Shown here: piece after piece, positions 696-6,160 of the stretch
How the letters are laid out: each line of letters opens with the position of its first letter
How positions within the stretch are numbered: the stretch's first letter is position 1
Notes under the pieces: model-generated
Told to the model about the DNA's origin: nothing
Database searches by the model: none
What the model saw: the letters and a program-made list of their open reading frames with translations, nothing else
Program-made: the position numbers and the translations under genes
NCBI GenBank assembly: GCA_030667985.1
Contig: DAOUUU010000008.1
Span: 1-37,584, forward strand
Source of the DNA: Candidatus Krumholzibacteriota bacterium
GTDB taxonomy: Bacteria > Krumholzibacteriota > Krumholzibacteriia > Krumholzibacteriales > Krumholzibacteriaceae
DNA length: 37,584 bases
Direction: 5' to 3'

Positions 696-1967
696 TCAAT
701 ATTCGTAGAAGCGCATACTGAAATTCATAAGGACTCCGGCGAGAAAACAGCTGATCAACATCGAACTCCCGCCATAGCTAAGAAAGGGAAGCGGAAGCCC
801 GGTCACCGGAGCAAGCCCGATCGTCATACCGATATTCACTATAACATGAAACGCGAAGTATGAACAGATACCGATTGCCGCAATCGAGGCGAATCGGTTC
901 TTTACCTGCGTCGCGAGATAATATCCCCTAAAAACAAAGAGGCCGTAAAGAACCAGGATGACAAACGCTCCGATGAATCCGAGTTCCTCGGCCAGCACGG
1001 AATATATAAAATCGGAGTGCCGCTCGGGCAGAAAGGCCAGGAGCTTCTGTGTCCCGTGCAGATACTGCTTTCCCAAAAACCCACCCGATCCTATCGCGAC
1101 CTTCGACTGGTAGACCTGCCATCCTGAACCGAGGATATCGGATTCAGGCCGCATGAAATCGAGGATCCTCTTCTGCTGATAGAGCTGCAGCTTGTTCCAG
1201 AAGTTCGGTACGGTGAGCATCACGGTGAGGTTCAGTATGACCAGCAGCGAGCTCTGGAATATGTAGCGCCTCCTCCTGTACGCGACAAAAAGCACGATCA
1301 TGAAGAAAACAAGAAGGGGAAAGGGATAATCTTCCGCCCCCGGAAGGCTACGCGAGCTGTAGATGGTGAGAATCGCGCTTATCACTGGCGAAAGCAGCAA
1401 TAATATTATCCCCTCGTTCAATCCGCGCCAGTAGAGGATCGGTAGAAGGAGCGCAGGGAATACGAGGGCCGTTCCCAGATCCGGCTGCTTCATTACGAGC
1501 AGGGTGGGCAGGGCCACAGCCGCCATCGATATTGCTATGACACGGATCTTATTGGGATCGTTCTTCTTCTCGGCAAGGAACCGGGCAATAATGAAAATCA
1601 CGGCTATTTTCATGAACTCGCTAGGCTGAAGGTTGAAACCTCCGATGACTATCCACCTGCTCGTCCCGCTCTCCGGCGATTGAAAGAAGGTGACGAGCAG
1701 CAGCATGACACCGACTGCATAGAAGAGCACGGCGGCGCTCTCGTAATTGCGAAACGGAACAGCCATGGCGGCGATCATCACCGCGATGCCGAGAGCCACC
1801 CATATCAACTGTCTCGTGAAGAATTGACTCTCAGCCGGTTGAAACGTGTCCTTCAGCTCCTCTGGAACATGACCCACCGAATAGAGGGTCAGGAGTCCGA
1901 ATCCGATGAGAAGCAACACCGGCAGCAGTATTAGAAGATCGAAATGTCCCAGCAGCTTTTCAGTCAT
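696..1967 (-). CDS. rodA: Rod-shape SEDS peptidoglycan polymerase RodA
   Basis: RodA is the SEDS-family glycosyltransferase that polymerises lipid II during side-wall growth, working with PBP2 in the inner membrane. The 423-residue product has about ten hydrophobic spans, the 'LQPSEFMKIAVI' stretch after the first spans, the periplasmic-loop region 'GSGWQVYQSKVAIGSGG', 'ERHSDFIYSVLAEELG', and the C-terminal SEDS hallmark 'GLPLPFLSYGGSSM'. The ORF track begins at a TTG at 1979. I prefer the ATG at 1967, which overlaps the mrdA stop by 8 nt (ATGACTGA), the usual coupling between these two genes. The stop is TGA and the lgt Shine-Dalgarno starts inside it. FtsW is the main alternative, but the mreBCD-mrdA context makes RodA much more likely. 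Confidence 0.96.
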   Translation of the reverse strand: MTEKLLGHFDLLILLPVLLLIGFGLLTLYSVGHVPEELKDTFQPAESQFFTRQLIWVALGIAVMIAAMAVPFRNYESAAVLFYAVGVMLLLVTFFQSPESGTSRWIVIGGFNLQPSEFMKIAVIFIIARFLAEKKNDPNKIRVIAISMAAVALPTLLVMKQPDLGTALVFPALLLPILYWRGLNEGIILLLLSPVISAILTIYSSRSLPGAEDYPFPLLVFFMIVLFVAYRRRRYIFQSSLLVILNLTVMLTVPNFWNKLQLYQQKRILDFMRPESDILGSGWQVYQSKVAIGSGGFLGKQYLHGTQKLLAFLPERHSDFIYSVLAEELGFIGAFVILVLYGLFVFRGYYLATQVKNRFASIAAIGICSYFAFHVIVNIGMTIGLAPVTGLPLPFLSYGGSSMLISCFLAGVLMNFSMRFYEY

Positions 1968-3789
1968 TCTGCAGTCCAAAGAAATAATAGGTTAATATCT
2001 CGCGTGCCACTGGGGCCGCCATCGCCCCGCCGTGCCCCGCGTTTTCCATCACTATGGCCAGGACGATCTCGGGATCCTCGGCAGGAGCATACGCGACGAA
2101 TAGAGCGTGATCCTCGCCGTGAGGATTCTGCGAGGTCCCGGTCTTCCCCGCTATCTTGATACCCGGTACCGCCGACGCTCTTCCCGTGCCTCTCTCGCCG
2201 GAAACGACGCCCTCCATCGCGCTCCTGATAATCCCCAACAGCTGCTTATCGATAGTGGGCAGCTCGACCGCGGGCCACTCGTAGTTCGAGGCCTTTCTAC
2301 CGTCGAAATCGACTATCTGATATACCATGTGGGGTTGAACGCGCTTCCCGCCGTTGGCGAATATCGCACTCATCATGCAGATCTGGAGCGGCGTGGCAAG
2401 TAGCTCCCCCTGCCCTATCGAATAGTTGAGAAGATGCCCCCTCGTCCATTTTCTCTTTCCGAAACGCCTGTCGAAATATGCATGGTCCGGGATGGTCCCG
2501 ACTGCCTCACTGGGCAGATCGATCCCGGACTTCTTTCCATAACCGAAAATGCGGCCCGTCTCGCCGAATTGGTCGGCCGACAGCAACTCCCCCAGTTGAT
2601 AGAAGTATATGTCGCACGACTGCTCGATAGCCCCCTTCATCGAGAGGGAACCGTGTCCCTCCGGTCTCCAGCACCCGAAATTCCTGTTGCCGAACCGGTA
2701 GGAACCGTAGCAGGGCTTTAGATGCTGTCTGGACCCGACAATCCTGTTACTCAATGCAGAATAAGCAGTTACGAGCTTGAATACCGAGGCGGGCGGATAG
2801 GTCGCCTGTATGGTCCTGTTGAAAAGAGGATTGTCCGGATTTTCGTAGAGCTTCTGCCAATCCTGTTCGCTCACGCCGCCGATGAACATGTTCGGATCAT
2901 AGGAGGGCCGGCTGACCCCGGCGAGTATCTCTCCGTTTCTGGGATCCATGACGACTACGGCTCCCTTGCCCCAGGTAAAGATCCTCTCCACCTCACGTTG
3001 GAACTTGATATCAATCGTCAGCCAGATATCCCTGCCCGGCACAGGAGCTCTGGACCCGACAAAACCATCCACACCTTCGATTCCGTCGAGTCCGTCGATC
3101 GTCCCTATCACGACACCGTCAGCACTGATCTCGACGAGCCGCTCTCCGTCGACTCCTTTGAGATAATGCTCATAGTTGAATTCTATTCCGGTGCGACCGA
3201 TCATATCGCCCCTGTGATAGTTGGAGATCTTGCCCAGTTCGTCATCGGTCACCTCTCCAACGTAGCCCAGGACATGAGCCGCGATCGTGCTGTCGGGGTA
3301 CTGGCGCCTGTGCTTCGAGACCAGTTTGAAGAATGTGAAGAACTCGCGGTTCTCCATCAGTATCGATATCTGTTCCTTATCGGCCGCCTGGACGACCGGC
3401 ATCTCCCTTCCATCGGGGAAACGTTCGGTCCACTCCTGCAGATTGCTCCTGAGTCTCTCTTCGTCGACTCGGAGCAATCTGCAGGCGACAGATAGTACAC
3501 CGCTCTTACCTCTTGTCTTCCGGGGCAATATGCAGATCTGATAGATGGGTATATTGACGACAAGTTTCGTTCCGCGTCGATCCCTGATGAAGCCGCGCGG
3601 CGCTATGACACGCTCTTTCCTGATACGGTTGGACAGGGCGAGCTCCTTGTACTGCTCCGCGCGCACCACCTGGAGGTAGAACAGCCTTCCGAGAATGATC
3701 AGTAAGACGGCGAGTATTATGAAGATCAGTTTCCTGAATCGGGCGTTGAGGGCCGCCACATCATGCCGGTCACTTCCCTCCACGTACAC
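1960..3789 (-). CDS. mrdA: Penicillin-binding protein 2 (elongation transpeptidase)
   Basis: PBP2 is the monofunctional class B transpeptidase that crosslinks side-wall peptidoglycan made by RodA. The 609-residue product has a short cytoplasmic tail, one membrane anchor at about residues 20-42, a dimerisation/pedestal region beginning near 'RVIAPRGFIRDRRG', and a transpeptidase domain. The active-site motifs are all present: SxxK as 'SVFK' near residue 333, SxN as 'SCD' near 390, and 'KTGTS' near 549. A Cys-Asp in the second motif is common in PBP2 proteins. The GTG start overlaps the end of mreD by 20 nt and has GGAAGG upstream. An internal GTG nearer the membrane anchor is possible but has poorer spacing. 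It lies between mreD and rodA, the classical elongasome order. Confidence 0.96.
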   Translation of the reverse strand: MYVEGSDRHDVAALNARFRKLIFIILAVLLIILGRLFYLQVVRAEQYKELALSNRIRKERVIAPRGFIRDRRGTKLVVNIPIYQICILPRKTRGKSGVLSVACRLLRVDEERLRSNLQEWTERFPDGREMPVVQAADKEQISILMENREFFTFFKLVSKHRRQYPDSTIAAHVLGYVGEVTDDELGKISNYHRGDMIGRTGIEFNYEHYLKGVDGERLVEISADGVVIGTIDGLDGIEGVDGFVGSRAPVPGRDIWLTIDIKFQREVERIFTWGKGAVVVMDPRNGEILAGVSRPSYDPNMFIGGVSEQDWQKLYENPDNPLFNRTIQATYPPASVFKLVTAYSALSNRIVGSRQHLKPCYGSYRFGNRNFGCWRPEGHGSLSMKGAIEQSCDIYFYQLGELLSADQFGETGRIFGYGKKSGIDLPSEAVGTIPDHAYFDRRFGKRKWTRGHLLNYSIGQGELLATPLQICMMSAIFANGGKRVQPHMVYQIVDFDGRKASNYEWPAVELPTIDKQLLGIIRSAMEGVVSGERGTGRASAVPGIKIAGKTGTSQNPHGEDHALFVAYAPAEDPEIVLAIVMENAGHGGAMAAPVAREILTYYFFGLQND

Positions 3790-4267
3790 CCACCATCCTT
3801 CCCGTGACCATCTCGACGACGAAGAAGATCACAACAGCTATCACCGCCGTATAGAGAGAGGATAGCAGCGAGTAGCGGAAGAATGAGAACAGGATATCCG
3901 GAATGGAAAATCTCAGAGTGATCGAGAAGAATATGATATCGTTCACGAGGCAAGCCGCCATGACGATAAATCCCCTGAAAAGCGGGTTTTCCGGGAGGAA
4001 TTCCGCTCCGAACCGCGAAACCCAGTAGGCTATGAGCGACTTGGCGAGAGCATTCGCCCCCAGGTGCTCGGCGTTACCCAGGTCCTGGAGAAAACCGAGT
4101 ACGAACCCGATTATGACCGCCGGAACCGGATTTCTCCCGAGGACGAGAGCGACTATGGCCATGATCATGAGCTTGGGATAGACATCGGCCAATCCCATAT
4201 GCGGAATCAGGGTGAGTTGCAGGACCAATATGAAAAACGCAAGCGTTGCGATCCTGACCGCGTTCAC
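3770..4267 (-). CDS. mreD: Rod-shape-determining protein MreD
   Basis: MreD is the small multi-span inner-membrane component of the elongasome that works with MreC. The 165-residue product starting at GTG 4267 has about five to six hydrophobic spans, 'LQLTLIPHMGLADVYPKLM' near the N-terminus and the 'GFVLGFLQDLGN' segment typical of the family. The ORF track extends it upstream to 4336, but that extension overlaps the mreC end and is basic and hydrophilic. The GTG at 4267 overlaps the mreC TGA by 4 nt (GTGA) and gives the normal family length of about 160-170 residues. It is translationally coupled to mreC upstream and to mrdA downstream. Confidence 0.92.
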   Translation of the reverse strand: MNAVRIATLAFFILVLQLTLIPHMGLADVYPKLMIMAIVALVLGRNPVPAVIIGFVLGFLQDLGNAEHLGANALAKSLIAYWVSRFGAEFLPENPLFRGFIVMAACLVNDIIFFSITLRFSIPDILFSFFRYSLLSSLYTAVIAVVIFFVVEMVTGRMVGVRGGK

Positions 4268-5124
4268 CTCGAAACCCCCGATCCGCCGCTTTCGGTGGCC
4301 TTCTCGAACTCCTCGTAGATCGCCGGTTTCTCCCATTCCTTTCCGCCGGTGATGATGAAGAGCTCCTCGAGTTTATTCAGATCGGACATGCTTATCGCCC
4401 TGACCTTCTTGCTGAGCCCTCCCTTCTCGTTAGTCACCTGCAGGACAGTGGCGACAAGAAATCCTTTTGGAAACAACCTTCCCAGCCCGCTCGTCACGAG
4501 CGTGTCACCGCGCAGAACATCCTCCTCCTTGCCGACGTAATCAAGTCTGAAGAAATTTTCCCGGTCCCACTCGAGAAGTCCCACGATCCTGCTCCGGCGG
4601 TTTATGCAACTTACCGAGACCGCTTTGTTGCTGAGAAGCAGAACATTCGAGAAATTAGAGAATACATGTTTCACACGACCGACGAGCCCCTTGTATCCGA
4701 CGACCGCCATCCCGACCCGGACGCTGTCCTGTGAGCCGCGATCGACGACGACGAAATTATGAGACCGATCCAAAGATCTGGCGATCACCTCGCACGGAAG
4801 GAATTCATGGAACGAGTCATCCTTCAACCCTATCAGCTCCCTGAGCCGGTTCCTCTCCGCCCCGAGCTGGAGCAGGCGCTATCGCTCGTGAGAGAGAGTC
4901 GCGACATCCTTCTTGAGCCGCAGGTTCTCCTCCACGAGTCGATCCATCGCCAAAAAATATGATTCGACCCTGTCCACGGGCCCAAGGAGAAAGGATTCGA
5001 CCGAGCGAGCGGTCTGGACCTGGCTATCGTCGCCAAGCGTAAGCAGAAAGACGGATAGGGCGACGGCGATGACGATCACCGTCTTGTCGAGATGCTTTTC
5101 GAAAAGGAAGGATAGAAACTGCAT
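4264..5124 (-). CDS. mreC: Rod-shape-determining protein MreC, interrupted by an in-frame TAG at codon 82
   Basis: MreC is the periplasmic scaffold of the elongasome, with one membrane anchor, a coiled coil and a two-beta-barrel domain. The ORF track shows two pieces, 4879..5124 (81 aa) and 4264..4827 (187 aa). They are in the same frame. The only thing between them is a TAG at 4879-4881, followed by 17 sense codons reading 'RLLQLGAERNRLRELIG' that complete the coiled coil. Read through the TAG, the product is 286 residues with anchor at about 17-33, coiled coil at about 55-105, and the C-terminal domain with 'VVDRGSQDSVRVGMAV' and 'GDTLVTSGLG', all as in intact MreC. The second piece could reinitiate at a TTG (4827), but it would lack the anchor. 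Error, nonsense mutation and readthrough are all possible. The gene starts 1 nt after the mreB stop. Confidence 0.9.
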
Positions 5125-5125
5125 G

Positions 5126-6160
5126 CTAGAACCGGGAGCTCTTCATAATGATTCGCTCGTATGAGTGCAAATTACCCAGGATCTTACCGCTTCCCAAAAC
5201 GACACAGGTCAATGGGTCCTCGACGATGTTTATCGGGAGATTCGTCTCCTCCTTGACGAGGGTGTCGATGCCCTTTAGGAGCGATCCGCCGCCAGTCATG
5301 ACGATACCGCGATCAACGATGTCGGCGGCGAGCTCGGGAGGAGTCTGCTCGAGCGCCGTCTTGAGAGCCGCGACGATCTGGCTGAGCGGCTCGGCGAGCG
5401 CTTCGCGGATCTCCATGCTCGAGATCCTGAGGGTCTTGGGTATCCCGGATACGAGATCCCGCCCCTTGATCTCCATCTCCTCCTCTTTCTCCATCTTCGT
5501 CGCCGTTCCGATGACCATCTTCACGTGTTCGGCGGTCTGGTCCCCGATGAGAAGGTTATAGGCCTTCTTCACGTGCTGGACGATCACCTCGTCCATCTCG
5601 TCGCCTCCCACGCGGATCGATATATCGGTCACGATCCCGTTGAGCGCAATGACGGCGATCTCAGTTGTTCCTCCCCCGATATCGATCACCATATTGCCTG
5701 AAGGTTTGTCGACGGGAAGCCCCACACCGATTGCAGCGGCGATCGGCTCGGCGATCAGATAGACTTCCCTCGCTCCGGCATTCTGTGCGGAGTCGGTGAC
5801 CGCCCGGCGTTCAACCTCGGTTATGCCGGAGGGAACGCTTATGACAATGCGCGGGCGGATGAAGAACCGCTTTTTCTGCGACTTCTTTATGAACTCCCGC
5901 AGCATCACTTCGGTGATCTCGAAATCAGCGATAACACCGTCTTTGAGCGGCCTTATGGCGGTGATGTGATCGGGAGTCTTGCCGAGCATAGCCTTCGCCT
6001 CGACGCCGACGGCATAGATCTTCTTCGTTTTCTGGTCGACAGCGACGACGGAAGGCTCGTTCAGGACGATTCCACTACCCTTGAGATAGACCAGTGTATT
6101 AGCCGTACCGAGATCTATTGCGATATCGTTTGACATGTATGCTGCTAAGCGCCCAAACAA
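5126..6160 (-). CDS. mreB: Actin-like cell-shape protein MreB
   Basis: MreB is the bacterial actin that forms membrane-bound filaments and positions the elongation machinery. The 344-residue product is full length. It has the phosphate-1 loop 'DLGTANTLVY' near residue 16, the phosphate-2 loop 'DIGGGTTEIAVI' near residue 165 and the adenosine motif 'MTGGGSLLKGI' near residue 290. The start is a TTG at 6160: AAGGAAGG lies 6 nt upstream, while the internal ATG (MSNDIAIDLG) has no Shine-Dalgarno, and many MreB proteins begin with an 'MFG' segment like this one. The stop is TAG at the normal family C-terminus, which matters for the question of whether TAG is reassigned here. It sits 14 nt after radC. 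Confidence 0.97.
   Translation of the reverse strand: MFGRLAAYMSNDIAIDLGTANTLVYLKGSGIVLNEPSVVAVDQKTKKIYAVGVEAKAMLGKTPDHITAIRPLKDGVIADFEITEVMLREFIKKSQKKRFFIRPRIVISVPSGITEVERRAVTDSAQNAGAREVYLIAEPIAAAIGVGLPVDKPSGNMVIDIGGGTTEIAVIALNGIVTDISIRVGGDEMDEVIVQHVKKAYNLLIGDQTAEHVKMVIGTATKMEKEEEMEIKGRDLVSGIPKTLRISSMEIREALAEPLSQIVAALKTALEQTPPELAADIVDRGIVMTGGGSLLKGIDTLVKEETNLPINIVEDPLTCVVLGSGKILGNLHSYERIIMKSSRF

What the first reader, a model, noticed from the sequence alone, without database searches (positions are those of the whole stretch)
4879..4881. In-frame amber codon inside mreC, with coiled-coil coding sequence continuing in the same frame
The ORF track splits mreC in two, but both pieces share a frame and only TAG 4879-4881 separates them. 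The 17 codons after the TAG complete the MreC coiled coil, and the rest of the protein is intact. MreC is required for rod shape in studied bacteria, and the rest of the operon is complete, so a simple dead gene is surprising. Explanations are an assembly/sequencing error, a recent nonsense mutation, or readthrough/suppression. One substitution from CAG, GAG, AAG or TTG would create it.
Basis: partly seen in the sequence, partly recalled or inferred. Interest (0 to 1): 0.7.

Follow-up and report, generated by a model that had tools for sequence, protein, structure and literature searches.

The report
Stop codon in mreC, probably miscalled base
A cell-shape gene (mreC) in a draft genome from uncultured bacteria carries one stop codon in its middle, but the same draft has the same kind of stop in genes no cell can lack, such as ribosomal protein S10, so a wrong base in the draft is more likely than new biology.

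Summary
TAG at 4881-4879 (minus strand) is codon 82 of the only mreC in this 2.5 Mb, 176-contig MAG, which groups with Krumholzibacteriota. The frame is intact on both sides. All 17 comparable same-family relatives have Glu (GAG/GAA) there, and no other mreC match in 80 phylum genomes contains a stop. One substitution, GAG to TAG, explains it.

The new evidence comes from the rest of the genome. In the 1.39 Mb that could be read, single in-frame TAGs also interrupt the only rpsJ (ribosomal protein S10), the only ftsB/DivIC, a QTMAN glycosyltransferase and probably an Ig-domain protein. A TAA interrupts an EamA transporter. A dead S10 gene is not viable, so either the bases are wrong or TAG is read efficiently.

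Suppression has little support. No CTA-anticodon tRNA and no PylS were found, RF1 is intact, TAG ends 31% of genes, and back-up stops are not enriched. The residues replaced in mreC, rpsJ and QTMAN are Glu, Lys and Tyr, all by transversion. The TAG excess (5 of 6) is compatible with codon usage (P=0.16).

Best reading: substitution errors, or minor variants, in the MAG consensus. Natural amber suppression is not excluded.

The parts
4879..4881 (-). In-frame TAG, codon 82 of mreC; Glu in all same-family relatives
4882..5124 (-). mreC 5' part: start, membrane-anchor segment and first half of the coiled coil (81 codons)
4264..4878 (-). mreC 3' part: rest of coiled coil and complete beta-barrel core, ending at its normal stop. 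First possible restart codons are TTG at codon 100 and GTG at codon 113, which would lack the membrane anchor
   Evidence: (PF04085 E=3.9e-39)
5126..6160 (-). mreB, intact
   Evidence: PF06723 E=5.6e-148
3770..4336 (-). mreD, intact
   Evidence: PF04093 E=3.9e-11
1960..3789 (-). PBP2-like transpeptidase of the same cluster, intact
   Evidence: PF00905, PF03717

Best explanation
The TAG is a wrong base in the consensus of this metagenome-assembled genome (a sequencing/assembly substitution error, or a rare variant taken into the consensus). The cells most likely carry a sense codon, Glu as in all close relatives, and make an ordinary full-length MreC. Shown: one substitution separates the gene from its relatives, and the same MAG carries equivalent in-frame stops in genes that must be expressed (rpsJ, ftsB). 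Inferred: that these bases are wrong rather than read through. No reads were available.
For: Only one substitution is needed; the frame, barrel and operon are otherwise intact, with 1 of 51 family-invariant positions after the stop changed, as in relatives. The only rpsJ copy has TAG at a Lys that is invariant in its relatives, and the only ftsB/DivIC copy has TAG in mid-domain. A QTMAN gene has TAG at a Tyr, an Ig-domain protein probably has one, and an EamA transporter has TAA. A dead S10 gene is incompatible with life (general knowledge). The three ancestral residues that can be read are Glu, Lys and Tyr, all reached by transversion, which suits errors without transition bias. TAG is expected to be 55% of random single-base stops with this codon usage, so 5 TAG of 6 is unremarkable (P=0.16). 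RF1 and RF2 are intact and no CTA tRNA or PylS was found.
Against: No read data. No obvious frameshifts were seen, so errors would have to be substitutions only. At least six stops in 1.39 Mb imply an error rate of roughly 1-3 per 10 kb, high for a well-covered short-read assembly. All three interrupted core genes have TAG and none TAA or TGA (chance about 0.17 from the proportions). The ftsB stretch after its TAG is less conserved than in any relative (47.7% mean identity against 59-69%), which a random error cannot cause.
Confidence: 0.68

Rival explanations
1. Natural amber suppression: the lineage recently gained an efficient TAG-decoding tRNA, absent from the incomplete MAG, so TAG mutations in essential genes became tolerable and mreC, ftsB and rpsJ are read through.
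For: Three interrupted core genes all carry TAG, and the one TAA is in a probably dispensable transporter. No obvious frameshifts. The MAG is 93.5% complete and lacks several expected tRNAs (for example His, Phe, Cys and Ile anticodons were not seen), so a suppressor could be missing.
Against: No CTA anticodon among 34 tRNAs, no tRNA from the TCTAR pattern, no PylS. RF1 is intact. TAG ends 31% of genes and back-up stops are fewer, not more, after TAG (29% against 38%). One inserted residue would have to serve Glu, Lys and Tyr sites. The TAG excess is not significantly above the codon-usage expectation.
Confidence: 0.12
2. Real recent nonsense mutation: mreC is truncated in this strain (or in a sub-population), with loss of the elongasome scaffold, as for other true pseudogenes.
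For: Single-copy gene; truncation leaves only the membrane anchor and half the coiled coil. The mreC part after the stop has slightly low identity (60.0%; relatives 58.8-70.5%).
Against: Neighbouring mreB, mreD and PBP2 are intact. Barrel invariants are kept. The equivalent TAG in rpsJ cannot be a tolerated pseudogene, so nonsense codons in this assembly cannot be taken at face value.
Confidence: 0.15
3. Programmed (regulatory) readthrough of mreC conserved in the group.
For: The frame remains open and coding after the TAG.
Against: No relative has the TAG. The bases after the TAG differ between mreC, ftsB, rpsJ and QTMAN (CGC, AGC, TCG, TCC).
Confidence: 0.02

Closest known systems
MreC (Pfam PF04085), rod-shape operon mreBCD
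   Same: Membrane anchor, coiled coil, complete barrel core, operon order mreB-mreC-mreD-PBP2
   Different: One TAG in the coiled coil, seen in no relative
Consensus errors in draft assemblies, seen as truncated predicted proteins (e.g. the protein-length check in PMC6785717)
   Same: Interrupted reading frames scattered over unrelated, even essential genes
   Different: That paper deals with indels from long reads; here only substitutions were seen
Amber suppressor strains and UAG recoding (supE-type tRNAs, pyrrolysine, TAG=Gln phages; from general knowledge)
   Same: In-frame TAG in otherwise intact genes
   Different: No suppressor tRNA, no PylS, TAG is an ordinary common terminator

Membership tests
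MreC (PF04085) | Complete barrel core | tested here: met
   profile 1-147 of 147, E=3.9e-39
MreC (PF04085) | Uninterrupted frame from membrane anchor through coiled coil to barrel | tested here: not met
   TAG at codon 82 in the assembled sequence
Amber-suppressing / TAG-recoding organism | tRNA with anticodon CTA | tested here: not met
   none found; MAG incomplete, so absence is not proof
Amber-suppressing / TAG-recoding organism | RF1 lost or TAG depleted as terminator | tested here: not met
   RF1 with PVT and GGQ motifs intact; TAG ends 31% of 924 genes
Amber-suppressing / TAG-recoding organism | TAG at sites of one consistent amino acid | tested here: not met
   Glu, Lys, Tyr
Amber-suppressing / TAG-recoding organism | Full-length protein made from a TAG-containing gene | not testable with these tools
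   needs proteomics
Pyrrolysine decoding | PylS | tested here: not met
   only a sub-threshold 24-bit hit
Assembly/consensus error | Reads contradict the base | not testable with these tools
   no reads held
Assembly/consensus error | Stops also in genes that cannot be lost | tested here: met
   only rpsJ copy, 1 TAG; only DivIC copy, 1 TAG

The most novel reading that the evidence does not exclude
A Krumholzibacteriota lineage with standard termination at TAG and intact RF1 carries a recent natural amber suppressor efficient enough to express ribosomal protein S10, FtsB and MreC from genes with in-frame TAG.
Probability: 0.1. Interest if true: 0.85.

Novelty: not a real feature. Interest (0 to 1): 0.25.

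Why it matters
If TAG were really read through in rpsJ, ftsB and mreC, it would be a wild bacterium living with ambiguous TAG decoding in core genes, an intermediate stage of code change that is normally only inferred. If, as is more likely, the bases are wrong, the lesson is practical: in draft MAGs an in-frame stop in an essential gene should be checked against other essential genes of the same MAG before biology is inferred.

Tried and rejected
1) Second intact mreC copy: none. 2) Suppressor tRNA: RF00005 search of the whole MAG, ARAGORN on the tRNA loci and on 1.39 Mb, and the pattern TCTARN{14,32}GGTTCRA: no CTA tRNA. 3) Pyrrolysine: no PylS. 4) RF1 loss: RF1 and RF2 intact. 5) Enrichment of TAG among internal stops: 5 of 6, but 55% expected from codon usage, P=0.16. 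My first guess of one-third per stop type had made this look significant; it was dropped after computing the expectation. 6) Back-up stops after TAG: fewer, not more. 7) Relaxed selection: mreC not clearly relaxed, ftsB tail relaxed. 8) Frameshifts: candidates look like gene boundaries or shadow frames by eye. 9) Reinitiation downstream: would give a barrel without membrane anchor. 10) The first alignment ignored strand and was redone. 12) One search failed on a wrong frame and was rerun. 13) Paper searches for mreC nonsense and natural readthrough gave nothing specific.

Full report
Observation. The plus strand reads CTA at 4879-4881, TAG on the minus strand, in frame at codon 82 of a 286-codon mreC (5124..4264). 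The 204-aa downstream piece holds the complete MreC barrel core (E=3.9e-39), and mreB, mreD and the PBP2 gene around it are intact. The window is contig C144 of a 2.5 Mb, 176-contig MAG estimated 93.5% complete, with this as its only mreC. The three nearest named records are Krumholzibacteriota/Krumholzibacteriia MAGs.

Ancestral codon. Relatives of the same family have Glu (GAG or GAA) at codon 82 without exception; the next families have Glu, Gly or Ser. Across 80 genomes of the phylum no other mreC match contains a stop, although one (G048) is split as if by a frameshift. The simplest history is one GAG->TAG substitution. That relatives lack a stop is expected under every explanation except conserved programmed readthrough, so it does not separate the main ones.

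Effect if taken at face value. Termination at TAG leaves 81 residues: the membrane anchor and half of the coiled coil. The coiled coil is needed for MreC dimers (PMC8804602). The first possible restart codons, TTG at codon 100 and GTG at codon 113, would give a barrel without anchor.

Looking beyond mreC. I read 1.39 Mb of the MAG and scored stop codons flanked on both sides by in-frame coding sequence with a codon-usage model, then inspected the candidates by eye and tested the convincing ones against Pfam. Most candidates are ordinary gene ends. Real internal stops: ftsB/DivIC (C126, TAG; PF04977 spans it), rpsJ (C24, TAG; PF00338 spans it), QTMAN glycosyltransferase (C30, TAG; PF12038 spans it), an EamA transporter (C136, TAA; PF00892 spans it) and, less surely, a secreted Ig/FlgD_ig protein (C4, TAG). 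Family searches show that rpsJ and ftsB are single in this MAG and uninterrupted in relatives. The residue lost is Lys in rpsJ and Tyr in QTMAN. Selection by eye favours conserved genes and is not a complete count.

What this means. Ribosomal protein S10 is indispensable (general knowledge), so the rpsJ TAG cannot be a tolerated dead gene. Either the assembled base is wrong or TAG is decoded efficiently. The same choice then applies, by parsimony, to mreC.

Test of efficient decoding. There is no CTA anticodon among the tRNAs found in the whole MAG, none by ARAGORN in the part read, none from a pattern search of the whole MAG, and no PylS. RF1 and RF2 are intact. TAG terminates 285 of 924 well-supported genes, and in-frame back-up stops are less common after TAG than after the other stops (29% against 38%). 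Glu, Lys and Tyr are unlike residues for one suppressor to replace. All three identifiable changes are transversions; with a transition bias of 4 this has probability 0.14, without bias 0.53. Codon usage predicts 55% TAG among random single-base stops, so 5 of 6 is unremarkable (P=0.16). None of these points is decisive alone, and the MAG lacks several tRNAs it must have, so a suppressor could be in the missing part.

Test of pseudogene decay. The mreC sequence after the stop keeps its family invariants (1 of 51 changed, within the range of relatives), though its mean identity (60%) is at the low end (58.8-70.5%). The ftsB stretch after its TAG is clearly less conserved (47.7% against 59-69%) and has lost invariant residues by changes of more than one base. 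That part is not explained by random error and may mean that the ftsB truncation is real or that this FtsB tail has diverged for another reason.

Error rate implied. About 3.6% of random coding substitutions create a stop. Six found internal stops therefore imply roughly 170 or more substitution errors in the part read, of order 1-3 per 10 kb. This is my inference; it is high but possible for a low-coverage draft.

Verdict. Observation correct; most likely a base error or a minor variant in the consensus (0.68). Real nonsense (0.15) and natural suppression (0.12) remain. Reads over four sites would settle it.

Noticed in passing
L091 / L242 (G000 C24), rpsJ TAG at C24:340: Only rpsJ (ribosomal protein S10) copy has an in-frame TAG at an invariant Lys position.
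   Followed up: yes
L153 minus strand / L197 (G000 C126:18471-18704): Only ftsB/DivIC copy has an in-frame TAG; the stretch after it is unusually diverged, two invariant residues changed by more than one base. Not explained by random error.
   Followed up: partly
L097:14637-15731 (G000 C30): tRNA-queuosine alpha-mannosyltransferase (QTMAN) gene with in-frame TAG at codon 21 in place of Tyr.
   Followed up: yes
L163:2436-3350 (G000 C136): EamA transporter interrupted by an in-frame TAA.
   Followed up: partly
L071:15355-16683 minus (G000 C4): Secreted Ig/FlgD_ig protein with a probable in-frame TAG.
   Followed up: partly
L163:9654-11192 (C136), L172:3214-4662 (C161), L218 (C130:6953-7046): Probable selenoproteins: NiFe hydrogenase large subunit with TGA after RICGV, TlpA-like redoxin with TGA-Pro-Pro-Cys; tRNA-Sec present (69.8 bits). 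Sec use in this Krumholzibacteriota MAG.
   Followed up: partly
L087 and L091 (G000 C20, C24): Two contigs start with the same EF-Tu 3' end: tuf probably duplicated, assembly broken at the repeat.
   Followed up: no
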